Below, in pieces: positions 12,955 through 60,212 of a DNA stretch of 64,000 nt. A program made the translations under genes and the position numbers. Positions within the stretch are counted from its first letter, which is position 1. Each line of letters starts with the position of its first letter. Below the pieces are notes generated by a model. That model was not told the DNA's origin. It worked only from the letters and a program-made list of their open reading frames with translations, and did no database searches. Origin of the DNA: Caulochytrium protostelioides (lineage: Eukaryota; Chytridiomycota; Caulochytriomycetes; Caulochytriales; Caulochytriaceae); assembly GCA_003615045.1 (NCBI GenBank), contig ML014196.1, positions 1 to 64,000 on the forward strand, in the 5' to 3' direction.

Positions 12955-15573
12955 ATGAGCGGCGCCACGCAGGGCCTCCCCGAACGGGTCGCCTCGTCGC
13001 CGCCGTCGCCGCCCTCATCGTCCTTGCCGGCAACGCTGCACGCGCCACCCGCGGGTCCTGACCCCGGACCCCCTGCCGGACCCCCTGCCGGACCCGATCC
13101 GGCGTCGGTAGCACCGACGGCGTCCACGGCTCGCGAGACCCTTGTCACGCCCCTCCTGCCCGCCGCCGCCACCGCCGCCACCGCCGCGCCAGACCCGGCC
13201 CACGTCAGGATCGCCGTCGCAGCCATCTCGTCGTCGTCGTCGTCATCATCGTCGTCGCCGTCGTCGCCTGCCGCTTGGCCGTCACCCGCCGCAGTTGCGG
13301 TTTCAGCGACTGCGGACTTGACCATGGCGATGGCCGTGGACCGGGCGATGACGGCGCCGCGGTCTCCCGCGGCCGTCAGCGCGGCGCCCGGGCCGCCGTC
13401 CGCGCCGTCCGCGCCGCCGCCGCCGCCCAATCTCTCGACCGTTTCGACCGCGCCCACGGAACACGATCATCCGAAACCGCCGCTGCCGGCTGCGCCGTCG
13501 CTCACCGCGGCGATCGATGTCACGACCCCATCCGCGCCAGCAACCACGGCCGCCACCCCCGCCGTCGCCGCCGCTGTTGCCGCGTCGCCCTCCGCGTCGT
13601 GGCCGCCATCGTCAGGCCCCATCCCCCTGGCCGACCCCGTTCGTACGGCCAGCCGCAAGTCGGCGGCGCCCCCGCCGCCGCCGTCGCCGCCAGCCAAGGG
13701 CCCGCGGAAAGCATACCCAAACCTGACGCTGCAGGCGCTTGCGGCGTCGCTGATGGACAAGTACCGCCAGACCGTGCCGCAGCTGCGGAATCGCGAGCGC
13801 CGGGCGCGCTCGCAGCGGCAGCCGTACGCGAAGCTGCTGGCGCACACGGCCGCCGAGCGCGCCTATGGCGGGCGGCGCGGCCCGTCGCCGGCGACGGCGC
13901 GGCTGCGCGATGCGCTCGGCGGCAGCGGGATCGACTCGGCCTCCGTGCACTCGGATAGCAACGCCGAGGACGGTGACGACGACAATCACTCTGAGGCCGG
14001 CGGCGGTCCTGCCGCGTCGGCGCACGGGTCGACCGCCGGCGGCGCTGCATATGGCCATGGCACGGCGAATCCGACCTCGCAGCAGATCCTGGAAGCGCAG
14101 TATGCCTCGCAGATCGATGCGCAGCTGAAGCAGCTGCCGGACGCGGTGTATGAGGTGCTGTATGCCAACGAGGACGCGCTGTCGCTGGCGAAAGCGGAGT
14201 TTTCGGCGCACCGCGCGGCGGTCGCGGCGCTGGTGGAGGACTACTATCAGCTGCGGGAGCTGCTGCTGGCGGAGGAGGAGCAAGCCATCCGCGGAGGTAC
14301 GCACCCGCAGCTGCGAGCCGACCTGGAGGCCGTCGCGCAGCGGAAGCGGCGCCAGCGCGCGCGCCTCGCCGACGAGCGCGACCTGCAGCTCGAGGTCGTG
14401 GCACACCAGCACGCCATGACCGAGCGCCTGACGACGCAGACGTGCATCAAGGCCCGCGAGCAGATCCGAACCGATCTGACCGCGCGCATCCAGATGCTTC
14501 TGATCCAGCTCGAGTATGAAAATGCACACTACTGGACCTTCGTCGACCACGCGCCCGCCTACCTCACCAGCGCGTTCCAGACGGCGCCCGAGACCGTGGA
14601 CCGCGACGTCCAGGCCCGGCTCCTGCAGGACCGGGCCGATCCCGACGGCATCGCCCACCACCGCGGCGCCGTGGCGCCGTGGATCGAAGCCAAGGCCAAG
14701 GAGCGCCAGCGCCACGGCTTCGAGCCGGTGCCGATCCCGACCTACCTTTTACCCCTCAGCGATGCTGATCAATGCGCCGACTTGGCGCTGGCGCGCATGT
14801 TGGCGCCGCCGCCGCCGCCGCCGCCGCCATCGATGCCGCCATCGATGTCATTGACGCCATCGATGCCGTCCATCTACGGCAATGGCGATGGCGATGGCGA
14901 AGATGACGGCGGCGGCAATGGCTTGCGGGCGCACCATGGGATGACTGTCTTCATGGACCCGGACACGCGAATGGCCGAGTCTGTCGACATGAGGGCCGGT
15001 GCCGATGCAAGCGCCCCCTTCGGCAGCCTGGCGCCGGCTGCCGCGTATGGACCACCGCCGCCCTACGCGGCGTCATCACTGGCGTTCGCTGCCAGGTCCG
15101 GCTACGGCCAGATCAACGGCCACGGCCCCGGCGTCTTCGCTGGCCCGCTGGGCGGCGTGCCGGTCGATCCGCCGTCTATGGACGGCCTTAGCGCCGCCCA
15201 AGCGGCCCACGCCGCCCCGCGCTACCCGACGCTTTCGCCGCATGCCGCGCCGCTCGGGTATCCGGACCCGGCGTCGATCGGCTATGCCGACCCTGCTTCC
15301 ATGGCGCCACCGCCGCCGCCGCCGCCGTTCCCGCCGATGCACGACGCGTCGCGGATGCCGTCGCCGGGCGAGTACCCCCTCCCGCAGCCCCTCTACGCCG
15401 AGCCGCCCAGCCACTCGGGGCTTCCGGGATACCGTGGCGTCCGCGGCCCTGGCGGGGGCCCCCTGCCCGACGCCTTCCACCCGCTGCCGCTTCCGTCGAC
15501 GCCGCGGGCGCCGTCCCCAGCCGAGGCGCGGCCGGCGCCGTCGACGCCGCCGCCGTCCACCGCTGCTGCGGCT

Positions 15574-15615
<42 letters not shown>

Positions 15616-15894
15616 GCCACGGCCGCGCCGGCTGCCCCTCACGGCGCCCTGGCGCCGCTTGGGCGCCATCCCTACGACGTGATGGACGGCCCTTACGCGC
15701 CACCAGGACCGCTCGAGCCGCCGCCGCCGCCGTCCGGCGGCGCCGACATGGGGGCCCCGATCGCGAGCGGGGGCGGGACGTCCCTGGCGACGGCGGCGCT
15801 GCCGATGCGTCAGCGCGGCACGACGGGTCGTGGCCGCGCACGGTCGCGAGCCAGTGCCAATGCCGCGTATGTGCAGCAGACGCCGGTCGGCTAG
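12955..15894 (+). CDS. Sds3/BRMS1-like subunit of a Sin3-Rpd3 histone deacetylase complex
   Basis: A 979-residue protein starting at the first ATG (MSGATQGLP). The open frame extends upstream only through a GTG and Arg-rich simple sequence. The first 250 residues are Pro/Ala/Ser-rich. A basic conserved patch (LTLQALAASLMDKYRQTVPQL) lies near 258. A long helical region at about 375-520 includes GGTHPQLRADLEAVAQRKRRQ. This segment aligns by eye with the Sds3 domain signature: G-T-H-P-x-x-L, then L-x-x-L/V, then Lys/Arg-rich helix, then regularly spaced E/L/Y heptads. Sds3-family proteins dimerise through this coiled coil and bring the deacetylase to Sin3. The C-terminal half is Pro/Ala-rich with poly-Ala at about 867-886, and is probably disordered. 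A generic coiled-coil protein is the alternative. Known Sds3 proteins are about 330 residues, so this one is enlarged by low-complexity sequence. Confidence 0.65.
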
Positions 15895-16796
15895 AGCCTG
15901 CGGCGCATCGAGCCTCCCCCTGCGACGCGGGCGGGGCTGCTCCCCCGATCGCTCCCTTCTCCGCTGATGAACGGTGCTGCTGAACGCGACAAATCATGCC
16001 ATCCAACGAGCGATGGGTGGAGCGATGGATTAAACGAATGATGTGCACCTGAATCCAGCAGTGTGACCTTTGACTTGGCCCTCTGGCGGGCCCTGCTCGT
16101 CCTGTGCCGCATGACGTGCCGATCCACGGGCAAATCACCCGCAGAAATCCTGCAGGGACGACAGCTGCGAAGCCCAGCCGCGTGGGCTCGAATGAGATCA
16201 AAGAATTGATCTCATGCGCGTAAGGTGCCAGGATGGGCCTTTTTATACGGGTTGGGCTTATATACGTCGGACCTATATATAAACGAATAATGGAATGGAT
16301 GGATGGATGAATGGATGGAGAGTGGGAGGGATCGCGGATCTCGAGAGAAGCTGTCGAAGCCGATGGGGCGGGACAGCGGAGGCTTATGCCACCGCTACAT
16401 CCTCGATGGGCCTCGAGCAAATCTGCATCAGCAGCTGGATGATTGGGTCGGGCCGAGCATGGCCGGCTGGGTGGTCCTTCGCGGACTCGTCGTCGCGAGG
16501 TCATAGGGATTCGGCGGAGGCGACCGCGCGGGGGTTCAGCACGCTGACCCGATGCGGCACGCCGTGCCCTGGCGGAGTTGAAAGGGGCTCCTGACGTCGC
16601 GGTCACTGCATACCTAGTATGCCAGTGATGGGGGCGCTGACTGCCCACGTGCGGTTGCTGTGCGCGCGACGTGCCGCACGATCGCGCCAATGTGCTTCGG
16701 GCTTCGTTCTCCATCAAGAGATGGGCACTGTCGTATCAGGTCATCAACCGCTTACCGCATGATACCGCTTTCGGTCGAATGTTTCAATGCGTCCCC
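15895..16796. other. intergenic between convergent genes, ATGG-rich patches
   Basis: About 900 bp between the stop of the Sds3-like gene and the end of secreted-protein gene A. It is noticeably more AT-rich than the flanks. It has two ATGG/TGGA-rich patches (around 16008-16035 and 16291-16322) and a TATATA-rich patch at 16259-16285. The segment 16290-16480 is distantly similar to 17760-17970 (shared GGATGGATGAA, AGAGAAGCTG and GCATCAGC-AGCTGGAT words). I see no coding sequence. Confidence 0.45.
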
Positions 16797-17210
16797 TTAC
16801 TCGCGGTTCGTTAAAAGCCTTTTGCGCTGTGGGTCACGCTCGGAGCGTTGCTGCGCGCGCTTTGATGCCTTTTCGGACATTTCGGCTACGCGACCTTCCA
16901 CCTTCATCGTCGATGTTCCCAAGAAAAACCGTGACTTAAATGATTCCTGCCGGTGGGACGATGAAGGGGTCGGCAATCTCCCAGCTTGCTGAGCAGTACG
17001 CTCCGGCGAGATCCCCGAATTGGGTTCAAGAGCCTTGAAGCCACCACTACCTCCGGGAAGAGCCTGATTTATATAGTTCTTGAATCGCTGAAATCCGTTC
17101 GGGTTCGTTTCAGTCAGATGCGGAAGAGGCGGTGCACCGGCGACACCGGGTGGTGTGAGGAGCACGAGCAGCGCGAAGGCGAGCGCGGGCAGCAGAAGCA
17201 GGAGCCGCAT
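16797..17210 (-). CDS. small secreted protein A of the shared-signal-peptide family
   Basis: A 137-residue protein. It starts with the textbook signal peptide MRLLLLLPALAFALLVLL, then TPPGVAG and a likely cleavage just before APPLPHLT. The mature part (about 112 residues) is basic, Ser/Arg/Lys-rich, lacks cysteine and matches no family I know. Copies B (21182) and C (23317) share the signal peptide and the first few mature residues, then differ completely. Over the hydrophobic core the nucleotide sequence is identical in all three. Over the Pro/Gly-rich stretch just after it, A and C differ at four bases, all third-codon-position and synonymous, which supports this frame. The mature region has clearly lower GC than neighbouring genes. 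A 145-bp upstream flank is also shared. Function unknown; a secreted effector-like role is only a suggestion. Confidence 0.6.
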   Translation of the reverse strand: MRLLLLLPALAFALLVLLTPPGVAGAPPLPHLTETNPNGFQRFKNYINQALPGGSGGFKALEPNSGISPERTAQQAGRLPTPSSSHRQESFKSRFFLGTSTMKVEGRVAEMSEKASKRAQQRSERDPQRKRLLTNRE

Positions 17211-17604
17211 GGTGGACGCGACGCAAGGATAACCAAGGGGGAAGAGGAAGGCCTAGTTGGGCGACGCGGGGACGTGGCGCGTCGACACGGATGAAGACGA
17301 ACACTGTTTCTAGCTACATTTTTGCCTTTTCAGCTATACCTCTGGCCGCGGGTCTGCCTTTGACTCCGGGTATGACGCTCACGACCAGGAAGTCGTGGAG
17401 ACATATAACCCCCGGCCGCGAGGACAATGAGGGCGAGGACAATGTCGGCCGCGAGGGCGAAGGCGGCAGAGAGACCCCAGCGGCGCCCTACAGCGTTGTA
17501 TAGACAGGCGTCGGGGCCGCTGGTGGAGTCGAAGCACCGCACGTGGCCGTCGCTGCGCCTATCTGGATCCAATGAGGGGTTCGCATGATGTGGCGCATGA
17601 CCGT
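17111..17604 (-). repeat. signal-peptide cassette, copy A
   Basis: A block almost identical to copy B over its whole length (about 493 bp) and to copy C over its first 248 bp (17111-17358). Reading the minus strand it carries, in order, the constant half of a membrane ORF, a spacer, and the start codon and signal peptide of secreted gene A. Similarity stops abruptly near 17604 on one side and within about 15 bp of 17111 on the other. No terminal inverted repeats or target-site duplications were seen. Confidence 0.9.
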
Positions 17605-17734
17605 TATGTACGCCGCAACGTCGGCACTGCCCTGTCCTTGCTCCGACCCCGTGGGCCCTTGCCGCCGCGGGTCGGCTATCGGGGGCGGATGCCCCGCTCA
17701 TTACCTTTTCCACCTGTGAAGCGCGACGAGACAT
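17330..17734 (-). CDS. possible small membrane protein A paired with secreted gene A
   Basis: A 134-residue ORF upstream of and on the same strand as secreted gene A, 119 bp apart. The N-terminal 45 residues are unique. From NGHAPHHANPSLDP onward it matches ORF B (21286-21702) up to the tail. The shared core has a hydrophobic helix (WGLSAAFALAADIVLALIVL) followed by AAGGYMSPRLPGRERHT. Of the few A/B nucleotide differences inside the core, two are synonymous in this frame and one near the tail changes Gln to Arg. A 1-bp indel then gives the two copies different C-terminal tails. It may be a real membrane protein, an upstream exon of the secreted gene, or simply open duplicated DNA. Confidence 0.35.
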   Translation of the reverse strand: MSRRASQVEKVMSGASAPDSRPAAARAHGVGARTGQCRRCGVHNGHAPHHANPSLDPDRRSDGHVRCFDSTSGPDACLYNAVGRRWGLSAAFALAADIVLALIVLAAGGYMSPRLPGRERHTRSQRQTRGQRYS

Positions 17735-18091
17735 GCCTCTAATCGAGAGATGGATTCGATGGGTGGACGAATGATTGGATGGAAGGATGGATGAAAGAAT
17801 ATAGGGAGGGCGGTATGGGTAGCGAGCTACAAGAGAAGCTGGCTGCTGACGAAGTCAATGAGGGAAGTGAAGGAAGCTCACACCCCCGCTGGATCCTGAC
17901 GAGCCTTACGTGGATCAGCAATAGCATCAGCTGGATTGTGACTGTCAGATTCGACACTGTCGGCGGGTTGGTTCTTCCCAAAGCGTCGAGGCGGACGGCA
18001 CAGCCGTGCCGCATCCAACCATCGAGATCGTCTTTGAGCGGACGCTGGGCCAGGAGGGACATCCAGGCGAATGATCGCCCCACATGACCGC
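17735..18091. other. intergenic, ATGG-rich 3' flank of the ABHD12-like gene
   Basis: About 360 bp containing a TGGA/ATGG-rich patch at 17747-17800 and the distant relative of the 16290-16480 segment. It is the 3' flank of the lipase gene. No coding sequence is supported. Confidence 0.4.
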
Positions 18092-20149
18092 TTAGACAGT
18101 GCTGTGGTCGTCGTCGCCGTCCTGGTCAGCGGCGGCGGCGTCCGGCATGCGGCGGCCTTGCAGATGCACTTCCCACCAGATGTCCATAATGTCGCGGAAA
18201 ACGTCGAAGGCGCCCACCGAGTTGTGGCCCGCGTGGGTGACACGGAGGAGCCAGAGGGACGCGTCGCGGACGGCGGCATCGACGACCACGCCGGTCTCGG
18301 CCGCCGGCTTGGCACGGGGCGCCGGGAGCCACAGCGTGCCTTCGCCCCCCGCGAGCCGCGTTTCCACAAAGGGGAGCACGTGCCGCGCACTGGCCGCGGC
18401 GTCCGCCTCGTCGGCGCTGAGATCGACGTCGCTGCGACGGTCGACGTCATCGTCCTCATCCTCACCCCCACCCCGGTGTTCGAGCGACCGCAACGCGTGT
18501 TGGGCACGAGCCCGCCGCCGCGCCGCCGTCCCGGCGGCCTCGACCATCGCAGGGGTTCCGGCCGCCGCGAGCCGCGAGCCGCCCGCTGCGCGTAGCTGGC
18601 GCAGCTGCCCACGCAGCGCGGCGCGGAACAGGGTTTCGCCGTGCAAACACGGGATCTCAATGTCGTCCATGCCGTGCGCGATGAGGAGCGGGCAGCCGAC
18701 ACCGCCGGCGACGTGGCGGTCGCCCTCCAGACGCTGGGCCGTGGGCCACTTCTCGCTGATGCACGTCATGGCGAGGGCGCGGAGGCGCTGGGCGACGCGG
18801 CGGCCACAGGCGCCGCCGTACCGCGCCAGCCACGCGATCGGCTTGAGCACCGGAACGAAGGGATACCCCAGCGCCGCCTCCGGCATCGAGGCGTAGCCCG
18901 CCAGCAGCACCAGGCCGCCGAGGCGCGGCCGCGCGGCCGCCGTCGCTGGGATGGGGCCATCGACCGGCTGCGGGAGAAAGCGCTCGGGGTGGTGGTGGAG
19001 CTGGTGGGCGACATAGGCAGCGACGCCGGTACCGAGGGAGTGGCCGACGAGCACGATGCGGTCCAGGGGCACGCGGCACTGGCACAGCGCGTAGCGCAGA
19101 ACGGCTTCGGCATCACGCTGGACGCCCGGCTCGGACGGCAGCACGGCCGGGGCGCCGTCGGTGCCGTCGGTGCCGGCGAGACGGGCCGCGGCGTCCGCCT
19201 CCCTGTCGGCCTCCGCGTCGGAGGCTTCATAGTCGGCGACGTGGTGGGGGTCGACGCGGCGGCTGTAGCGTCGCACCGAGTCGCCAAAGCCGCGGTAGTC
19301 CGCGACCAGCACGTGGCACGAGCCGGTCATCGCATCGCCGATGTCGCTGTGTGTGCCCACCGAGGCCATGCTGCGGAGGAAGGGGACGCGGGAAAAACTG
19401 CCGCGGTGGCCCGCGTTCCCATGAAAGTAGATGATCAGCGTCGGACGGGGCGGCGCCGAGTGAAGCGGTGTCAGCCCCGGCGGCCCCGGCGGCCCGCGTG
19501 CGGCGGACGCGAAGGCCCGCCGGATTAGGACGTGCACCGGTGTCAGCCGCTCTTGCCGGTCCGCATCGCCGCTTCCGGGGAGACTGTCGTCGTCGTCGTC
19601 GTCGCTGATATCATCCTCGCGGTCGGCACGGACGCCGGGCGGCTCGTCATGCCGCGGCCCGCGTGTTGGGCGCCGGTGTTGGCGGTCCTGCGCCTGATCC
19701 GGGTCCTGGTGACGGTGTTGACGATGGCTGTGGCCGTCTATCACATGCGCGTGGGCGTGGGCATGCAGCACGCGTTCTCGATTCTGGTGCCAGCGCGCGC
19801 GGCGCGGCAGCAGGTACCACGCACCGAGGAGGACGCCGTGGTCGTGCATGGCTCCGGTGGGCGCCTGGGTCGCTTCATAGGGGACATCCGAGGCGCGGAT
19901 CCAGAGATGACGGGCCGAGCCCGCTCGAAACCCCGAGCGAGCCGGGTGGCGCAGTAACTGGCGCACGGCGCTGCGACCCCATGGGTAGTAGAACCAATGC
20001 ATGTACACCAGATACGGTTGCGTCGCAGCGGGGAACCAGATAAGGATGGCCAGGCCCGCCGCCCAGAGCAGCGTCGCATACAGCACATAGCGCACGAGGG
20101 CATGAGCTGCCGCGACGGCGAGCTGCAGGAGTCCGGTGACGAGGGCCAT
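18092..20149 (-). CDS. ABHD12-like membrane-anchored alpha/beta-hydrolase (lysophospholipid/monoacylglycerol lipase)
   Basis: A 685-residue protein from the first ATG (20147-20149); the frame extends upstream only through a TTG. The N-terminus holds one or two hydrophobic helices (residues 3-40: LVTGLLQLAVAAAHALVRYV then LLWAAGLAILIWF), as in ABHD12. The hydrolase fold follows, with oxyanion-loop motif IIYFHGNAGHRG near 240, DYRGFGDS near 285, nucleophile elbow GHSLGTG with Ser near 369, acid in GMDDIEIP and final His in THAGHNSVGAFDV. ABHD12 hydrolyses lysophosphatidylserine and monoacylglycerols at the ER membrane. The family is usually about 400 residues; the surplus here is charged linkers (Asp/Arg-rich around 130-180). 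The gene sits between two signal-peptide cassettes but has ordinary codon use and looks like a host gene. Confidence 0.85.
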   Translation of the reverse strand: MALVTGLLQLAVAAAHALVRYVLYATLLWAAGLAILIWFPAATQPYLVYMHWFYYPWGRSAVRQLLRHPARSGFRAGSARHLWIRASDVPYEATQAPTGAMHDHGVLLGAWYLLPRRARWHQNRERVLHAHAHAHVIDGHSHRQHRHQDPDQAQDRQHRRPTRGPRHDEPPGVRADREDDISDDDDDDSLPGSGDADRQERLTPVHVLIRRAFASAARGPPGPPGLTPLHSAPPRPTLIIYFHGNAGHRGSFSRVPFLRSMASVGTHSDIGDAMTGSCHVLVADYRGFGDSVRRYSRRVDPHHVADYEASDAEADREADAAARLAGTDGTDGAPAVLPSEPGVQRDAEAVLRYALCQCRVPLDRIVLVGHSLGTGVAAYVAHQLHHHPERFLPQPVDGPIPATAAARPRLGGLVLLAGYASMPEAALGYPFVPVLKPIAWLARYGGACGRRVAQRLRALAMTCISEKWPTAQRLEGDRHVAGGVGCPLLIAHGMDDIEIPCLHGETLFRAALRGQLRQLRAAGGSRLAAAGTPAMVEAAGTAARRRARAQHALRSLEHRGGGEDEDDDVDRRSDVDLSADEADAAASARHVLPFVETRLAGGEGTLWLPAPRAKPAAETGVVVDAAVRDASLWLLRVTHAGHNSVGAFDVFRDIMDIWWEVHLQGRRMPDAAAADQDGDDDHSTV

Positions 20150-20891
20150 GTCGGCGACCAATGGCGGCGGCGCGCTGGGAGCCGGCGATCGCCGGAGCAA
20201 CAGTCAACCGCAAGGGGAGCCGCACCGGTACCAGGCCTCAAGTCCGGATGCGCTGGCGTCTCGACCAGCCAATGCGCACCAGCGACTACACGCTGGGCCG
20301 AGATGAGACGAGATGAGACGAGCGGCTGAACGTTGCTGGTCACGCGCGGGGGCATCGTCGTGAGGATAGGATCGGATCTGCGCGCCGAGGCCCCATGAGA
20401 CGGCGGCAGCCTTCGTATGCGGCTGCAGGGGCCAGGCGGACGCTGTCACCGGCAGCGCCACGGCGGGCCATCAGGGATGACTGGGGTTGAATGGGCGGTT
20501 GGTCTAGGCAACGGCATGGGCGATGGTCTAGGCGGCGGTATGGACGGGAGCCTGACCGCGGCAGCGCGCGTCGTGTGGCGCACGCCATGCGTGCCGCCAT
20601 GCGCGCCGCTCTGCACGCCGCTGCGCCATCGCCCTTACACCCTTTCTCCGACCTCGATCGATGGTCGCCGCCGGCCGCTCCCCGGGCCCCAACCCCCGCG
20701 CATCAGTGGCGTGACGGATGAGACTTACAACGCGCCGCATGATGGGATGAACACAGATGCTTGATTGTTTAACTAGATGAAGGAATAGAGAACCATAGAG
20801 CTGACGATTCAGAGAAACTCGTGGTGGACGACGTGGATGGGGGATGAGGCCACTCACGCCGCCGGCGCTGCGTAGGCGAGTTCATACGGTT
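20150..20891. other. intergenic upstream of the ABHD12-like gene, no gene seen
   Basis: About 740 bp containing the lipase promoter region and the 3' flank of secreted gene B. A direct AGATGAGACG duplication occurs at about 20299-20320. A moderately AT-rich patch lies at 20750-20820. No domain-bearing ORF is present. Confidence 0.4.
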
Positions 20892-21182
20892 TTAGGCGAC
20901 TTCGTGGCTAGGGGAATGAGTGCCGAGAGACCCCGAAGTCGTTGCGGCGCCGGGGTCCGTCGGGCCTGGCGCGGGTATCCTACGAGGTCTAGACGGATCG
21001 AGCGCGGAGCGTTCACCCCCCGATACTGAGCGCGGAGGTGTCGAAGAGAGTTCCGTGATCACGTGAGACTCCGCCGGCGGTCCAGTCACATGCGTAAGAG
21101 GCGGTGCACCAGCGACACTGGGTGGTGTGAGGAGCACGAGCAGCGCGAAGGCGAGCGCGGGCAGCAGAAGCAGGAGCCGCAT
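20892..21182 (-). CDS. small secreted protein B of the shared-signal-peptide family
   Basis: A 96-residue protein with the same signal peptide as A and C (MRLLLLLPALAFALLVLL) and then TPPSVAGAPPLTHVT, which carries three amino-acid changes relative to A. The mature part (about 70 residues) is Ser/Thr/Pro/Gly-rich with no cysteine and no resemblance to A or C. It is the shortest and most divergent of the three, and the spacer just upstream of its ATG also has several substitutions, so B may be decaying. Membrane ORF B lies 103 bp upstream on the same strand, the same arrangement as in copy A. Confidence 0.5.
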   Translation of the reverse strand: MRLLLLLPALAFALLVLLTPPSVAGAPPLTHVTGPPAESHVITELSSTPPRSVSGGERSALDPSRPRRIPAPGPTDPGAATTSGSLGTHSPSHEVA

Positions 21183-21575
21183 GGTGGTCGCGGCGCAGGA
21201 GTAACCAAGGGGGAAGAGGAAGGCCTAGTTGGGCGACGCGGGGACGTGGCGCGTCGACACGGATGAAGACGAACACTGTTTCTAGCTACATTTTTGCCTT
21301 TTCAGCTATACTCTGGCCGCGGGTCTGCCTTCGACTCCGGGTATGACGCTCACGACCAGGGAGTCGTGGAGACATATAACCCCCGGCCGCGAGGACAATG
21401 AGGGCGAGGACAATGTCGGCCGCGAGGGCGAAGGCGGCAGAGAGACCCCAGCGGCGCCCTACAGCGTTGTACAGACAGGCGTCGGGGCCGCTGGTGGAGT
21501 CGAAGCACCGCACGTGGCCGTCGCTGCGCCTATCTGGATCCAATGAGGGGTTCGCATGATGTGGCGCATGACCAT
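21083..21575 (-). repeat. signal-peptide cassette, copy B
   Basis: Matches copy A along about 493 bp with scattered substitutions and a 1-bp indel near 21310. Its end near 21575 corresponds to 17604 in copy A. It carries the constant half of membrane ORF B and the signal-peptide start of secreted gene B. Confidence 0.9.
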
Positions 21576-21702
21576 TGTTACTAGTGTCCGTCACGACGAC
21601 GTGGCTGGGCAACACAGGGTTGTCGGGCGCCGCCATGCGCGCCACGGCGCCACTGGCTGGCCCTCGCCAGGAGGGCCATCGATCATACCCTTCCCCACCC
21701 AT
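21286..21702 (-). CDS. possible small membrane protein B paired with secreted gene B
   Basis: A 138-residue ORF. The first 56 or so residues are unrelated to ORF A, then the constant core begins at NGHAPHHANPSLDP with the same hydrophobic helix. The tail (SRRQTRGQSIAEKAKM) differs from A because of a 1-bp indel. As with ORF A, whether this is translated is uncertain. The pairing with a downstream secreted ORF in two copies is the main reason to list it. Confidence 0.35.
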   Translation of the reverse strand: MGGEGYDRWPSWRGPASGAVARMAAPDNPVLPSHVVVTDTSNNGHAPHHANPSLDPDRRSDGHVRCFDSTSGPDACLYNAVGRRWGLSAAFALAADIVLALIVLAAGGYMSPRLPGRERHTRSRRQTRGQSIAEKAKM

Positions 21703-21766
21703 GTAGGTGCGAAGAGGTTTAAAGCGATTTAAAGATATTAAAGGAACAGCCCCTCTAATGGTGCCC

Positions 21767-22516
21767 TCAGGGGTACCCCACGGCGGCAGTGACGCATTCG
21801 ATTTTTTGCCGGCGGAGCTTGCCGACTACGGGCTGCAGAGGAGCTTGCCCGGGGTTGCGGCAAGGCGCCGCAGGTCTGACCAGCAAGGCCAGGCCGCGTC
21901 GGATGTTCAACGCGGCATTGAGATCGCGGATCGCAAACTTGCCGGGGGTTGCTTCACACCACGGCAAACCTCGGACCACGGTCCCCTCGCGCCGGCGTTG
22001 CCCGGGTTTCAGGACCACATTCGTCTTGGCATAGACCCGGGTCCTACGGACCGGGTTGGCCGGCGTCGGCGCGGTGGGGGCCCGCCCGGACGCAGGAGAT
22101 ATTGGCGCGGCCGTCGTGTGCCGGATATGCATCTTAGTCAGGATCTGATTCGTCTAGGCACGCACCTGAGTCGTCCGGAACTCGTCGACCAGGATGGTGC
22201 GAAAACGCTGTGCGCACGTCCGGTACGCCCGAGATGTCAGAACGGCGATCTCGCCCTTGCCGTCGGGGGCACACTTGGAGGCGCCATAGGCCACCACCAG
22301 AGGCTTCTCCTTGGCGGCACCGTCGGCGACGCGATTCATGAACTGGGCAACCGGGCGCTGCTTGCCACCGTAAAGCCGCAGGCGCTGGCGTGTCCAGCGC
22401 GGCTTCAGATGCTCGGTCTCCAACGACTCGTACGTGGCGAGCCACACCGGGCGGAGCGGCAGCTCATGGCACGGGTGAGGCGGCGGCAGAATCTTCGAAG
22501 CGCCGGTCGGTCGCCG
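21767..22516 (-). pseudogene. Fanzor (eukaryotic TnpB-like RNA-guided nuclease) remnant
   Basis: The minus-strand reading frame from 22516 to 21767 gives the C-terminal half of a Fanzor protein, interrupted by an in-frame TAG at 22154-22156. Recognisable landmarks are LRLYGGKQRPVAQFMNRVAD, VVAYGASKCAPDGKGEIAV, and VDEFRTTQ with the RuvC-II glutamate codon at 22181-22183. After the stop come VRGLPWCEA...GKFAIRDLNAALNIRR, with the RuvC-III aspartate codon at 21923-21925, and a C-terminal RPAAPCRNPGQAPL. The order and spacing match Fanzor/IS605-IS607 OrfB families. The cysteines of the zinc ribbon between the two motifs are partly lost, the N-terminal half with RuvC-I is absent, and a TGA at 22517-22519 closes the frame upstream. 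It is a dead, truncated element lying between cassettes B and C. Confidence 0.8.
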
Positions 22517-22807
22517 TCACAGCTCGACGCTCATGGAAAGGCTCTGATGCATCAATACCTTGCCATGCAGCATGCTGAGCTATGATCAACAGAGACGGCG
22601 GCCGCCATCATCGTCGAATGAGTGTGCAAGAGCCCACGCGCCACGGGGCAGATCGAATCCCTTCACCATCTCACGCCACCCAGCAGGAAAAGCGCTTTTA
22701 TCCAATCATATTAAGCGGTATACATCCGCTGCTGTCCATGGGCTGTGATCGGCCGAAGGCATGTCGCTCTGTTCTTGACGGTACATGTCGCGCATAGGCC
22801 CAGCCGA
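22517..22807. other. short intergenic region, no gene seen
   Basis: About 290 bp of mixed composition between the Fanzor remnant and the 3' end of secreted gene C. No Fanzor N-terminal motifs were found in any minus-strand frame here. Confidence 0.4.
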
Positions 22808-23317
22808 TCACTCAGAATGGATGGATTCCTCGTCCGTATCGAGCAGCCCCCGCGTGTCCTTATAGTTTGTAGCAAAATTTCCAGTGTCCCGAAGCGACGC
22901 GTCACGTTGTGCCGCAGACGAGGTCGAAGCAAGTTTTGACTCCATCGTTTTGAGATGCTCCATCTCCGCAGCCATCCTCTGAATTTTGTAATCGTTGCGA
23001 TTTGCCTTCGCTTTATCCATCTGTGGGTCAGGGTTTGGCTGGGTACTCACATCGGAGCCTTTATGGTTGCGCTCCACACTGGGGCGAGGCTTTCCGCGCG
23101 CGGAAGGAGGCCTACTCTTCTTCAAGACTGTCGCACCGTCTTCAACGGGCTGATACTTGCCCCTAAAAAAACTCATCAATTTGTTGTTCATTCGGACCAA
23201 CGTTTTCGGCTTCGTTCCAGTCAGATGCGGAAGAGGCGGTGCGCCGGCCACGCCGGGCGGTGTGAGGAGCACGAGCAGCGCGAAGGCGAGCGCGGGCAGC
23301 AGAAGCAGGAGCCGCAT
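22808..23317 (-). CDS. small secreted protein C of the shared-signal-peptide family
   Basis: A 169-residue protein with signal peptide MRLLLLLPALAFALLVLL followed by TPPGVAGAPPLPHLT, identical at the protein level to copy A despite four silent nucleotide changes. The mature region (about 140 residues) is hydrophilic and Lys/Arg/Ser/Asp-rich, with no cysteine. It contains a short helix-prone stretch (KIQRMAAEMEHLKTMESKLA) and an acidic end (DTDEESIHSE). It is unrelated to A and B after the first few residues. GC content of the mature region is visibly lower than in host genes. It lacks the paired membrane ORF because the shared block ends about 150 bp upstream of its ATG. Function unknown. Confidence 0.6.
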   Translation of the reverse strand: MRLLLLLPALAFALLVLLTPPGVAGAPPLPHLTGTKPKTLVRMNNKLMSFFRGKYQPVEDGATVLKKSRPPSARGKPRPSVERNHKGSDVSTQPNPDPQMDKAKANRNDYKIQRMAAEMEHLKTMESKLASTSSAAQRDASLRDTGNFATNYKDTRGLLDTDEESIHSE

Positions 23318-23466
23318 GGTGGACGCGACGCAAGGATAACCAAGGGGGAAGAGGAAGGCCTAGTTGGGCGACGCGGGGACGTGGCGAGTCGACACGGATG
23401 AAGACGAACACTGTTTCTAGCTACATTTTTTGCCTTTTCAGCTACACATCTGGCCGCGGGTCTGCT
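23218..23466 (-). repeat. signal-peptide cassette, copy C (short form)
   Basis: Shares about 248 bp with copies A and B: the signal-peptide codons plus about 145 bp of upstream flank. Similarity ends near 23466 (after CTGGCCGCGGGTCTGC), so the membrane-ORF core is missing. One extra T in the TTTTTT run (23426-23431) and one C/A change distinguish its flank from A. Confidence 0.9.
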
Positions 23467-23939
23467 TCCTGTGTTTATCCCGGAGGCACGGTGCCTTCCA
23501 TATGTCACCCTTGGCTCTCTTTTCCATTGTGGTTGCTCGTGCCGCTTGCCACATCGTCAGTCGGCCGCACGCATCGGCTCGCCTCCACGCTTTACGTTGT
23601 CTCAGGTAACGCGCTGAAACACCGCAGGCTCCGCCACACCCGTCCGCTGAGTGCAGCGCCGCGACCGGCGTTGCTTACGAGTGCGGAGTCATCGCCGTAG
23701 CACCCCTATCTTGCCTCAAGGCTGACGCTGGGCAGGAAGCGCCGCAGCTGCGTCGAGCCAGGGAAGGCCAGTCGCGTCCGGCTATAAGCTTGCTGATGCG
23801 GATGGCCTCCTTTTGGGGGACCCTTGGGGGCACCCGGGGTGCTCGCGTTCGTCTCACAGGAGAGCCTTAAACCATATAGAAATTCAGCGTCCGCGGGGTC
23901 CCCGATGCCGGGCGGATGTGGCGTCGCCAGGACGATGCG
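23467..23939. other. intergenic, no gene seen
   Basis: About 470 bp between cassette C and the 3' end of the PFKFB gene. Lower GC than average, with no repeat of the neighbouring cassettes and no supported ORF. It likely contains the PFKFB 3' UTR. Confidence 0.4.
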
Positions 23940-24181
23940 TCAGACCGGCTGGTCAAAGGTGATGCGGACGGGGCTGGACGGCATGCTTGGAGGCGCGCTG
24001 GCAGGCACGACGACTTCGACGACTTTCACGAGCACGGACGGCGGGGACGGCACGACGGGCCGCGACGGGGCGGGCACCCGCGGCAGCGGCGTCGCGGCCG
24101 CGGCCGGCGTCGGCGTGGGCGCAGCGAGGGAGGGCGAGGACGCTGCGGCGGCGGCAGCAGCGGTGACAGGGGTCGCCGGGA

Positions 24182-24227
<46 letters not shown>

Positions 24228-27080
24228 CGAGGTGGCTGGGGCCGGGGGCGGGACGGCGGTCGGGGTTCGCACGCCGCCGGCGCTGGTGGGCGAGGCGAGG
24301 TTGGGCGCCTTGCGGGCGCGATAGGTGTTTACAGCAGGGATATCGACCCGAAAACGAGTTTCGACGCAGCCGTAGGCCTTCGGCGTGATGCGCATGACCA
24401 TATGGAGCGGGATCGGGATGTACGGCAGCTCATCGTGCGAGAAGGACAGCAGATAGCCGTAGATGCACCGCAGGACGGCTTGGTGGCCGATAATCAGGAT
24501 GGCCTTATTGGGGTCGTGGCGGTGCCGTTCCAGCTCCATGATCACCGGCTCCAAGCGGCGCACCAGGTCGGCATAGCTCTCGCCGCCCGGGCCGTGGTAG
24601 CGGTAGTTATACTTGTCGTTGTCGCGCTCGGCAAACTCCGCCGGAAAGCGCTGCTCGATTTCGGCATAGGTCATGCCGTCGCACGCGCCGACCGACAGCT
24701 CGTCCAGCTCGCGCCAGGCAATCTTGGGGTACGGCAGCAGGCTCGCGGTCTGGCGGGTGCGCCGGAGCGTGGAGGTCCACACCGTGAGCGACTCGGGCTC
24801 GCGGACGGCGTCGGCGTCGGCGTCGGCGTCGGCATCGCCATCAGCGCCACGAGATCGTTCGCGATCGTCGTCAGCGTGGCCGTACGGCGTATAGGCCTGC
24901 GCCTGAGCGATGAGCTCGGGCAATGCGCGCATGTAGCGTTCACCGCGCGGGCTGAGCAGGCTGTCGCCGCCGATGCGCCCCTCGAGGTTGAGCTGGCTCT
25001 CGCCGTGGCGAGACAGATAGATGTTGGCGTGCCCAATGTTCAGGTTCATGAGCAGCGCGACGATGCGGCTCTGCAGGTAGCCACGGACGCGGTTCACAAT
25101 GACCTGTTCGTTGACGTTGATGAGCTTGACAAAGCTGATCTCGGCGTCCATCTCGTCGACAGACAGCGTCTCGTAGCCCTTCTCGTAGAAGCGAATGCGC
25201 GCCATGAAGTCCGCCACCGCGGCGTCCGCGTCCCAGCCGACGTAGTCGGGACTCGACAGCTTGACCTCCCGGATGTTCTGCATGATCACGTCCTCGCGGT
25301 CGCAGATGCTCTCGATAAACAGCACGTCGATGCCGTGCGCTTTGCACAGCGCCTGGATCGCGGCGCGGCGCGACATCGTCGAGTTCGTCGCGTCATACAT
25401 GGCCACGAACGTCGGCGCGCCCTTCGCGCTGCTGCTCGAGCCATGGCCCCAGTCGCGGGTTCGACGGCTGTCGGCGCGGCCGAGCCGGCTTGGGTCCTTC
25501 TTGGCGGGCGTCGACCCCCGACGCGGGGGCGGTTGCGCGTGAGCAGGCTGCGACGGCGTGGGGGGCGTGGCCGGCGGCAACGCCGCTACGTGGCCCGCGC
25601 CATGCATCGGCTGGATCAGGGTCGTTCCCTGGATGTGCCCCGGCGCCGTCGGAGGCCCGCGTGCCGTCGTGGCGGCGGTTGCTGTGGTCGCCGGCGCGGC
25701 CGCCGGCTTGGGATGCAGATGCGTGGCGCCGCTGCCGCTGCCGCCCGAGTAGGAAGTGATGTGCGGCGCCAGCTGCACCGGGCCCGTTCCCAGGTGCCGG
25801 TGGTGGTACAGCGCCTTGCGGTCGTCGTCATCATCATCGTCGTCGTCTTCGTCGTCTTCGTCGTCGTCGTCGCCCTCTTCCTCCAGCTGCTTCGCCAGCG
25901 CGGCGTCGTCCAGATGGGCGGCGCTGGCGCCTGCGCGCTCGCGGCGCCGACGCAGACGCTGGTTCTTGCGGAGCTTCTTGGCGGCGTTGTCGACGGCGGC
26001 GCGGACCTTGTCCCGGATCATCTGGAGATGCTGCGCGCGCGCGGCGGCCGTGTTGGGCGACGCCGCCGACGTCAGGCCCTCGACCGGGAAGGTGATTCCG
26101 GCCGTGCTCGCCACGCCTTCCTCCTCCGCAAGTGGAGCAGTGTCGGCGAGCTCGGCCGACAGCGACCGCGTCGGTACCGGTGCCGGTGCCGGCGTGGTGG
26201 TGGTGGTGGTGGTGGTGGTGGTGGTGGTTGCGGTCGTCGAGGCCGTCACCACTGGGGCGCCGGCGGCAGCGGCGGCACCGGCAGCGGCCGAGGCAGCAGC
26301 AGCAGCAGCAGCGGCGGCGGCGGCGGCGGCAGCCACGTGGGACTCGCTCGAAGCGCTAAAGTTGGCATCGGCCTGGGCGTGGGCCTGGAGGGCCTGCTCG
26401 CGCGCCATGCGCGTCTGCCGCTGGGCGCGGCGCGAGGGCCGTTTGTCGACGTGGTCGAACCACTCGATCATTTCCATCAGGCAGAGGCGCGCGATCTCGG
26501 TGCGAATCTGGGCCGAGTCCTCGTCGTCCGGGTCAAAGAAGGAGCTTGGCTGGTCGGCGCCGACGCAGAGGCGCCGCAGGTTGCCGACGTTGAAGACACG
26601 CGCGGTGTAGCCGAGCCACGCCAGGTAGCGGGCGACCTTGGCGGCGATGAAGGTCTTGCCGCGCGCGGGCAGGCCGCAGATCACGACGGCCAGCTTCGTG
26701 GCGGGCAGCGGCGAGTCGTCGTCGGCCTCGCTCCACAGCGAGCTGGTCGACCCGGACGCGGCCTTGGCGGGCTGCGGTGAGGCGGTGGGCATCGCGGTGG
26801 GCAATGCGACAGCGGGCGGCGGCATCGCGACAGCGGGCGGCGGCATGGTACGGGGACCATCGCCCGTGGCCGCCGGAGCAGCGGGTCCTGCGGGCATCTC
26901 GTGCCCGATCGCGTCGGCAGCGGCGGCAGCGGCGGCAGCGGCGTCAGGCAGGACCGACGACGGACCGGTGGCAGGGAGGAGGGCCGGGGCCGGGGAGGCC
27001 GAGGGCGACGGCACCGGCGGCGGCGACGACGACGCGGCGCTGGAGCTGCCCGATGCAGGCATCGCCGGGGGTGCCGACAT
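23940..27080 (-). CDS. bifunctional 6-phosphofructo-2-kinase/fructose-2,6-bisphosphatase
   Basis: Makes and degrades fructose 2,6-bisphosphate, the allosteric regulator of glycolysis. A 1046-residue protein from the first ATG (27078-27080); the frame extends upstream through a TTG only. The kinase domain begins near 125 with Walker A GLPARGKT near 133 and FNVGNLRRLCVG. After MEMIEWF near 205 it is interrupted by roughly 330 low-complexity residues (poly-Ala, a 12-residue Thr run, Asp/Glu-rich patches). It then resumes with FVAMYDATNSTMSRR, FIESICD and VKLSSPDYVG. The phosphatase domain has the phospho-His motif RHGES near 690, an RRTRQTA motif and GHQAVLRCIYGYLL near 861. Both active sites look intact. 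The insertion would have to loop out of the kinase fold or be an unrecognised intron. Alanine repeats also occur near the C-terminus. Confidence 0.93.
24183..24229. repeat. (GCG)n run encoding poly-alanine
   Basis: An uninterrupted GCG/CGC triplet run inside the C-terminal tail of the PFKFB gene, read as alanine on the minus strand. Confidence 0.9.
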
Positions 27081-59260: not shown

Positions 59261-60028
59261 TGCGCTCGCCGCCTGGAGGCCGTCGCCCAGGGTTATGGAC
59301 GCGGCCAGTCACACCCGCGCAGGGTCCTGGCGGAACACGATGTCCGTGCCCGGGAGTCCACCCCACGGGGCCGCGTGTGGAAATGAGATGACCCCCGTCG
59401 GAAGGGTGCTTGGTGACACCGCTGCCCGCGGCGGCGCCTCGCCGATCCTCGTCGGCCCCGTCGGCGGTCGGGGACCTTCATACTGCCATCACACCTCCCA
59501 TGGGAGCGAGAGCCATGCGCATAAGAGAGATCCGCGCGGCCCCGCTGCCACGATGACCTGGCATGACATAACATGGCATGCCATGACATGGCATGACATG
59601 ACATGCCATGCCATGACGCTTATGGCACGCCCCTGAGATACCCGCCAGGAGCACCACTCCGCTGGCGCCTCCGTCATCACGTCAGAACGATCGATCGTCG
59701 GGACCACGAATGACGTCGCCTGCCCCCTCAAGTGGGCGTCACGGCCCTCCCCCAGGACCCGAGGCGCTCCACACGGCGGACGGCCGGAACGTGCCCGCGG
59801 CCGGAAACGCCGACCGCGATACCAAAGACGACCCGCGGATCGCTCTCGCGAGCCCTGGCGACCCTCGTGGCTGCAGTCAGACGCCGAGGCACAGGATCAT
59901 CGATTCGCCACCACGGGGCTGATCCCGTACAGCGGCGAGTCGCGTGGATACGGCACGGATCCTTGTGGCTCTGTCGAGGATCATTGATTGAACCGCGGGT
60001 GTCTCTCTCGATCCATCGGTCTCCTATA

Positions 60029-60140
60029 CTATCTGTCTCTTCACCTATCTGTCTCTTAACCTATCTGTCTCTTAACCTCTCTGTCTCTTAACCTATCTGT
60101 CTCTTAACCGATCTGTCTCTTAACCTATCTGTCTCTCAAT
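60029..60140. repeat. 16-bp tandem repeat (CTATCTGTCTCTTAAC), seven units
   Basis: Seven consecutive 16-bp units with one or two substitutions each (for example CTCTCTGTCTCTTAAC, CGATCTGTCTCTTAAC). The last unit blends into the next array by ending in CTCAAT. Confidence 0.92.
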
Positions 60141-60212
60141 CACGCTCTGCCTCTCCATCACGCTCTGTCTCTCAATCACGCTCTGTCTCTCAATCACGCT
60201 CGGTCTCTCAAT
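60141..60212. repeat. 18-bp tandem repeat (CACGCTCTGTCTCTCAAT), four units
   Basis: Four 18-bp units directly following and sharing the CTGTCTCT core with the 16-bp array. Pyrimidine-rich on the plus strand. They lie 140 bp upstream of the small Cys-rich protein gene. Confidence 0.92.

What the first reader, a model, noticed from the sequence alone, without database searches (positions are those of the whole stretch)
16797..23317. Three small secreted proteins share one signal peptide but have unrelated mature regions
Seen directly: ORFs at 17210-16797, 21182-20892 and 23317-22808 (all minus) begin with the same MRLLLLLPALAFALLVLL signal peptide and the following Pro/Gly stretch, then diverge completely. 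Between A and C, four nucleotide differences in the TPPGVAGAPP region are all synonymous third-position changes, while the hydrophobic-core codons are identical in all three copies. Conserved leader plus variable payload is the layout of diversifying secreted families (venom-peptide-like or effector-like organisation). I know of no described fungal family with this leader.
Basis: partly seen in the sequence, partly recalled or inferred. Interest (0 to 1): 0.85.

Follow-up and report, generated by a model that had tools for sequence, protein, structure and literature searches.

The report
Three local copies of secretion leader
In a mycoparasitic chytrid fungus, a short stretch of DNA carrying a presumed gene start and a secretion signal is present in three nearby copies, each in front of a different tail; it looks like a small, local chimeric-gene event, not a large diversifying toxin-like family.

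Summary
ORFs A (17210-16797), B (21182-20892) and C (23317-22808) share codons 1 to about 35, then lose similarity. But the shared unit is a DNA block, not a protein leader: 495 bp at 97% (A/B) and 261 bp at 96% (A/C), mostly upstream of the ATG, where it differs no more than in the leader. No significant similarity lies downstream. The held 20.9-Mb genome showed only these three copies, by DNA, by leader protein and by a 29-mer with 3 mismatches. A large protein search returned only A and C. The genome is Caulochytrium protostelioides, a mycoparasitic chytrid.

The tails have no cysteine, no Pfam family, and third-position GC below 43 of 43 tiles from six Pfam-supported genes. The frames of A and especially C are open longer than composition predicts; B's is not.

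Best reading: local copying of a start cassette (presumed promoter, 5' UTR, signal peptide) in front of unrelated sequence, giving two possible young orphan secreted proteins and one doubtful copy. Homogenised old paralogues or a passive duplication remain possible. A side observation, hundreds of candidate TnpB/Fanzor-like fragments in the genome, may matter more.

The parts
16797..17210 (-). ORF A, 137 aa: signal-peptide-like leader + basic (pI 10.9), cysteine-free orphan tail
   Evidence: in the protein database as P0001
20892..21182 (-). ORF B, 96 aa: same leader + Pro/Ser/Thr/Gly-rich tail; openness after the break is chance-like, doubtful gene
   Evidence: (2028 of 5000 simulations open)
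22808..23317 (-). ORF C, 169 aa: same leader + basic (pI 9.7), cysteine-free orphan tail
   Evidence: (35 of 5000); P0002, found in 2 contigs
17098..17605 (-). copy A of the duplicated start cassette: upstream sequence, CCACCATG start context, leader, to about codon 38 (17111-17605 shared with B, 17098-17357 with C)
21078..21576 (-). copy B of the start cassette (21083-21576 shared with A, 97%; 21078-21328 with C, 93%)
23205..23465 (-). copy C of the start cassette (shorter at its 5' side; 96% to A)
18092..20200 (-). alpha/beta-hydrolase gene lying between A and B; not part of the duplication
   Evidence: Pfam Abhydrolase_1, E 3.5e-07, over its cut-off
21767..22447 (-). degenerate TnpB/Fanzor-like fragment between B and C (assignment by eye); not part of the duplication
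   Evidence: relatives

Best explanation
A 0.26-0.5 kb block holding the start of a gene (presumed promoter, 5' UTR, start codon and signal peptide up to about codon 35) was copied locally, in the same orientation, in front of different sequence, giving chimeric ORFs. Each copy carries what is needed to begin a transcript and send its product into the secretory pathway; what follows is whatever reading frame lay downstream. A and C probably encode young, lineage-specific, small, basic, cysteine-free secreted proteins; B is probably a non-functional or chance fusion. Shown: the block, its limits, three copies found, no significant 3' similarity. Inferred: promoter activity, secretion, translation of the tails, direction of copying, and any role against the fungal host.
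For: Block identity spans upstream and coding sequence alike. Copies are in the same orientation but separated by different DNA (a hydrolase gene, a TnpB/Fanzor-like fragment) that is not repeated with them, so this is not a plain tandem repeat of a whole gene. No significant DNA similarity 3' of the break (best E 2.1 for A/B, 0.12 for A/C, 0.04 for B/C). The tails of A and C find only themselves in the genome by protein and DNA, apart from one chance match of A at E 1.4. Frames of A and C are open longer than a dinucleotide model predicts: 287 of 5000 and 35 of 5000. GC3 of the tails, 0.57 (A), 0.60 (C) and 0.62 (B), is nearer to the local intergenic GC (mean 0.625 over 13 tiles) than to six Pfam-supported genes (43 tiles, lowest 0.75), as expected if the tails only recently became coding.
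Against: The 3' break is at nearly the same codon in all three although the 5' ends differ, which random fusion does not predict. Total GC of the A and C tails (0.54, 0.52) is under all 13 local intergenic tiles (lowest 0.56), so they are not simply typical neighbouring non-coding DNA. The leaders themselves also have low GC3 (0.70, 0.67, 0.79; 0, 0 and 3 of 43 tiles as low), and by GC3 minus GC2 the C tail is not exceptional (6 of 43 tiles as low; A 2, B 0), so the GC3 argument is weak. Anchored comparisons just after the break give weak A/C and A/B similarity (A/C protein, first 45 residues, 28 of 2000 shuffles; full tail 217 of 2000; DNA over 100 nt p about 0.02-0.03 against real local sequence), but none for B/C. 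A and C tails resemble each other in charge and GRAVY (-1.11 both) and low GC, hinting at common descent. In a frame test the tails of A and C do not score best in their own frame (A's is the worst of its three forward frames), while two control gene pieces do, so translation is unproven.
Confidence: 0.5

Rival explanations
1. A, B and C are old tandem paralogues of one secreted-protein gene. Gene conversion keeps the 5' part (upstream region and signal peptide) alike while the mature parts diverge under host-driven selection, i.e. the first reader's family in a small form.
For: Same break codon in all three; A/C tails share composition and a weak anchored similarity; differences are patchy: 5 of 13 A/B substitutions lie in -19..-6 (scan p 0.0099) and 4 of 7 A/C substitutions in codons 20-25 (p 0.026) (window sizes chosen after looking), as conversion tracts or unseen donor copies would leave.
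Against: No significant downstream similarity; B/C tails show nothing; only three copies found; leader has amino-acid changes in B; different genes lie between the copies.
Confidence: 0.2
2. A passive local segmental duplication that happens to include a gene start; the tails are not translated or do nothing, and only one copy (or none) is a gene.
For: B's openness is chance-like (2028 of 5000); tails have GC3 below 43 of 43 tiles of Pfam-supported genes; own-frame score not best for A and C; no homologue outside A and C in the protein searches; open frames are common here on both strands (55 ORFs of 80 aa or more overlap 14000-26000, starts ATG, GTG or TTG).
Against: C's 132-codon frame is open in only 35 of 5000 simulations and A's 99 codons in 287 of 5000, both in frame with the leader; all four A/C leader changes are synonymous (P 0.014); A and C are listed in the protein database, C in two contigs.
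Confidence: 0.27

Closest known systems
Chimeric genes made by partial (5') gene duplication (general class; recalled)
   Same: A copied 5' part with upstream sequence and start codon lies before different downstream sequence; no significant 3' similarity.
   Different: Here the copied part ends soon after a signal-peptide-like leader, so every product would enter the secretory pathway; three same-oriented copies lie within 6.5 kb.
Crinkler (CRN) effectors of oomycetes, with CRN-like proteins in the chytrid Batrachochytrium (PMC4695088, passages seen; PMC5907361, passages)
   Same: Constant N-terminus, different C-termini, diversification described as gene duplication and chimeric recombination.
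   Different: CRNs carry LFLAK and DWL parts after the signal peptide and form highly expanded families; here there is no LFLAK by eye and only three copies were found.
Conotoxin-type precursors (recalled; search listing only)
   Same: Conserved signal peptide, divergent mature part.
   Different: No cysteine in the mature parts of A, B or C; no conserved 3' part; three copies.
Orphan small secreted proteins (SSPs) of fungi and oomycetes (PMC5907361, passages: under 300 aa, no functional annotation)
   Same: A and C are under 300 aa, have a signal-peptide-like leader, have no homologue in the searches made and no annotation.
   Different: They share a nearly DNA-identical start cassette.

Membership tests
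Orphan small secreted proteins (SSP) | under 300 aa, no functional annotation | tested here: met
   137, 96, 169 aa; no Pfam family over its cut-off (only QWRF for A, 13.6 against 25 bits)
Orphan small secreted proteins (SSP) | N-terminal signal peptide | tested here: inconclusive
   Only a crude hydropathy rule of my own: of 824 ATG codons in the window that open 60 aa or more (nested starts counted), 4 pass, three of them A, B, C; no SignalP available
Orphan small secreted proteins (SSP) | expressed and secreted | not testable with these tools
   no RNA or proteome data
Diversifying leader/payload family (venom-like) | many paralogous copies | tested here: not met
   3 copies found in 20.9 Mb; counts are lower bounds and the assembly may be incomplete
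Diversifying leader/payload family (venom-like) | cysteine framework in the mature part | tested here: not met
   0 cysteines in residues 26 to end of A, B and C
Diversifying leader/payload family (venom-like) | leader under stronger constraint than neighbouring DNA | tested here: not met
   A/C 4/99 in the leader against 3/147 upstream; A/B 4/99 against 5/147; hints the other way: 4 of 4 A/C changes synonymous, P 0.014, and no change in codons 1-19, P 0.015
Diversifying leader/payload family (venom-like) | mature parts homologous to each other | tested here: inconclusive
   local alignments not above shuffles; anchored A/C weakly so; B/C none
CRN effectors | LFLAK motif after the signal peptide | tested here: not met
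   absent from the three translations by inspection; motif as named in PMC4695088

The most novel reading that the evidence does not exclude
The block is a portable secretion starter: a self-sufficient promoter, 5' UTR and signal-peptide cassette that, when copied in front of non-coding DNA, turns it at once into secreted orphan proteins in a mycoparasite, so that A, B and C are stages of new effector genes born from non-coding sequence.
Probability: 0.15. Interest if true: 0.65.

Novelty: new member of a known kind. Interest (0 to 1): 0.33.

Why it matters
If A and C are translated, the cluster is a compact example of how orphan secreted proteins could arise in an early-diverging mycoparasite: the start cassette is copied and the tail is new. 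If they are not, it warns that a shared signal peptide with 'variable payload' can be produced by a plain local DNA duplication in a GC-rich genome where long open frames are common. Either way the three copies found argue against a large venom-like family in this assembly.

Tried and rejected
Rejected: a large family (no fourth copy by DNA, leader protein or 29-mer with up to 3 mismatches). Rejected: cysteine-rich toxin-like peptides (no cysteine in the mature parts). Rejected: a dispersed transposon carrying the leader (no copies found outside the 6.5 kb; A's and C's tails and C's flanks found no other place; only a stretch well downstream of A, about 16072-16288, has short relatives on C203, C72 and C49). 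Considered and left open: residual homology of the tails. Considered: the TnpB/Fanzor-like fragment between B and C as agent of the duplication; nothing links them beyond neighbourhood. No structure prediction ran. Literature: search listings; passages only of PMC6784888, PMC10432273, PMC5907361, PMC4695088, PMC6690862; no paper was read whole.

Full report
Observation. Up to codon 33, the four differences of A against C are all synonymous; of the four of A against B three change an amino acid. Given the leader's codons, 34% of random changes would be synonymous; 4 of 4 has P = 0.014, and over the three copies 5 of 8 has P = 0.096. Codons 1-19 are free of any change in the three copies (P = 0.015 if the 16 substitutions seen in -147..+99 fell at random, but the longest change-free run as such has P = 0.13). 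So there is at most a hint of constraint on the hydrophobic core.

What is shared is DNA. Self-comparison of the region gives A/B 495 bp at 97.2%, A/C 261 bp at 96.2%, B/C 253 bp at 92.9%. Most of it lies upstream of the ATG. Per site the upstream part is as alike as the leader (A/C 3 of 147 against 4 of 99; A/B 5 of 147 or 9 of 395 against 4 of 99). All three copies keep a CCACCATG start context. Similarity ends at about codon 35-38 in each pair, and a lenient comparison of the 3' parts finds nothing significant (best E 0.04 for B/C, 0.12 for A/C, 2.1 for A/B). The DNA between the copies (an alpha/beta-hydrolase gene, and a TnpB/Fanzor-like fragment) is not repeated with them.

How many copies. 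The held genome (20,945,662 bases, 337 contigs; the window is the first 64 kb of contig C86, 76,980 bases) showed three copies: 3 of 3 matches lie in this cluster for the 543-bp block, for the leader as protein and for a 29-mer allowing 3 mismatches (reversed control 0). Queries with whole A and whole C found the three leaders, and for A one more match at E 1.4. The tool warns that counts are lower bounds, and the assembly may lack sequence. The tails of A and C found no other place by DNA. In a database of about 5.8 billion proteins, of which only those sharing short words were scored (175 candidates), A finds itself (P0001) and C (P0002, held in two contigs); the tail of C finds only C among 16 candidates. 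B was not among the hits although its length was admissible, so it may not have been called as a gene by the sources.

Organism. A protein named 'hypothetical protein CXG81DRAFT_23488 [Caulochytrium protostelioides]' (P0011) lies in this genome at 100% over residues 141-554 and 99% over 1-142. The genome also has 19 hydrophobin matches over the Pfam cut-off (the single-cell paper reports 14 in its proteome, PMC6784888, passages) and the flagellar-transport family IFT46 (E 1.4e-65). It is therefore C. protostelioides, a chytrid listed in PMC6690862 as an obligate parasite of deuteromycetous fungi (passage).

Are the tails coding? For: with a dinucleotide model the frame after the break stays open in 287 of 5000 simulations for A (99 codons), 2028 of 5000 for B (61) and 35 of 5000 for C (132), and A and C are in the protein database. 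Against: six Pfam-supported genes of this window (two of them, LRR and MARVEL, below Pfam's cut-off) give 43 tiles of 300 nt with GC3 of 0.75 or more (median 0.89); the tails have 0.57 (A), 0.62 (B), 0.60 (C), and 0 of 43 tiles are as low. Three things weaken this: the leaders themselves have GC3 of 0.70, 0.67 and 0.79 (0, 0 and 3 of 43 tiles as low); by GC3 minus GC2 the tails of A, B and C are matched or undercut by 2, 0 and 6 of 43 tiles; and the whole island is GC-poorer. Local intergenic GC is 0.625 (13 tiles, lowest 0.56), while the A and C tails have total GC of 0.54 and 0.52, below all 13, so they are not simply typical neighbouring non-coding DNA. In a composition-corrected amino-acid score, pieces of the hydrolase and PFKFB genes scored best in their own frame, B's tail was best of its forward frames by a small margin, A's tail was worst of its three forward frames and C's was second (own frames are f2 for A, f0 for B, f1 for C). 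So C is a probable gene, A a possible one, B doubtful; if translated, the tails are young or unusual. They are basic in A and C (pI 10.9 and 9.7), hydrophilic and without cysteine, with basic clusters that could be read as nuclear signals (by eye only).

Are the tails related? Plain local alignments are not above shuffles. Anchored at the break, A/C protein gave 16 of 300 shuffles; over the first 45 residues 28 of 2000 with BLOSUM62, 52 with BLOSUM45, 121 with PAM250; over the full tail 217, 178 and 305 of 2000. Anchored DNA over 100 nt gave 7 of 2000 shuffles for A/C and 13 of 2000 for A/B, but against real local sequence of like GC only p 0.016-0.025 (A/C) and 0.019-0.029 (A/B), 0.02-0.10 at 60 and 150 nt, and 0.32-0.68 for B/C. 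Several lengths and matrices were tried, so this is inconclusive. Changes are patchy (5 of 13 A/B substitutions in -19..-6, p 0.0099; 4 of 7 A/C substitutions in codons 20-25, p 0.026; window sizes chosen after looking), which could mean conversion or lost donor copies.

Mechanism. The economical reading is copying of a start cassette into nearby sites in front of different sequence. Each copy brings the presumed promoter, 5' UTR and signal peptide, so any open frame behind it becomes a secreted product. The common 3' break point is the main thing this does not explain; an exon boundary, a recombination point, or old paralogy with 5' homogenisation would. I put the cassette reading at 0.5, passive duplication at 0.27 and homogenised paralogues at 0.2.

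Novelty. Chimeric genes by 5' duplication (recalled), orphan small secreted proteins and N-terminally constant effectors such as CRNs (passages of PMC4695088 and PMC5907361) are known kinds; this is a small new case. In the text searches no listed title or abstract start describes this leader or a promoter-plus-signal-peptide cassette of this sort (one search listed 12 of 23 papers); the library lacks most subscription journals.

Noticed in passing
window 21767-22447 (-), and places across G000: Degenerate TnpB/Fanzor-like fragment (DPGRTNI-, VDEFRTT- and RDLNAALNI-type motifs in several relatives printed; assignment by eye, motifs recalled). A 97-aa piece has 448 first-look candidates in this 21-Mb genome, 150 scored, 151 matches; listed rows other than the piece itself show 45-76% identity, many with stops inside. 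P0011 gives 503 candidates, 78 scored, 78 matches at E 1e-20 or better, its own two pieces included. Pfam support is weak: PF07282 at E 0.092 in one of four genome relatives, and of five database homologues one just over its cut-off, 26.6 against 26.3 bits; no PDB match. Of 104 database hits, the best are 617-629 aa, 53-55% identical over half the query, on contigs of 2.3-4.0 kb; one hit is from Chlamydomonas eustigma. No paper in the library holds both 'Fanzor' and 'Caulochytrium'. Such an expansion in a small chytrid genome would deserve its own study.
   Followed up: partly
17330-17608 and 21286-21576 (-): The part of the block shared only by A and B contains an open frame with a strong hydrophobic stretch (WGLSAAFALAADIVLALIVLAAGGYM); the frames run 134 and 138 aa but differ at the N-terminal side; no Pfam family, no other copy found except a weak match on C113 (E 0.056).
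   Followed up: partly
about 16072-16288: Downstream of A, short stretches with 73-89% relatives on contigs C203, C72 and C49: perhaps a dispersed repeat remnant.
   Followed up: no
15751-18000 and 20501-23750: The ORFs lie in islands of lower GC (about 0.54-0.66 in 500-nt tiles) beside the hydrolase gene (0.68-0.76) and the DNA left of 16000 (0.76-0.81); the right flank is 0.64-0.74.
   Followed up: no
59988-60163: Array with a 16-base period (TCTCTTAACCTATCTG-like units; eight overlapping 64-nt copies spaced by 16).
   Followed up: no
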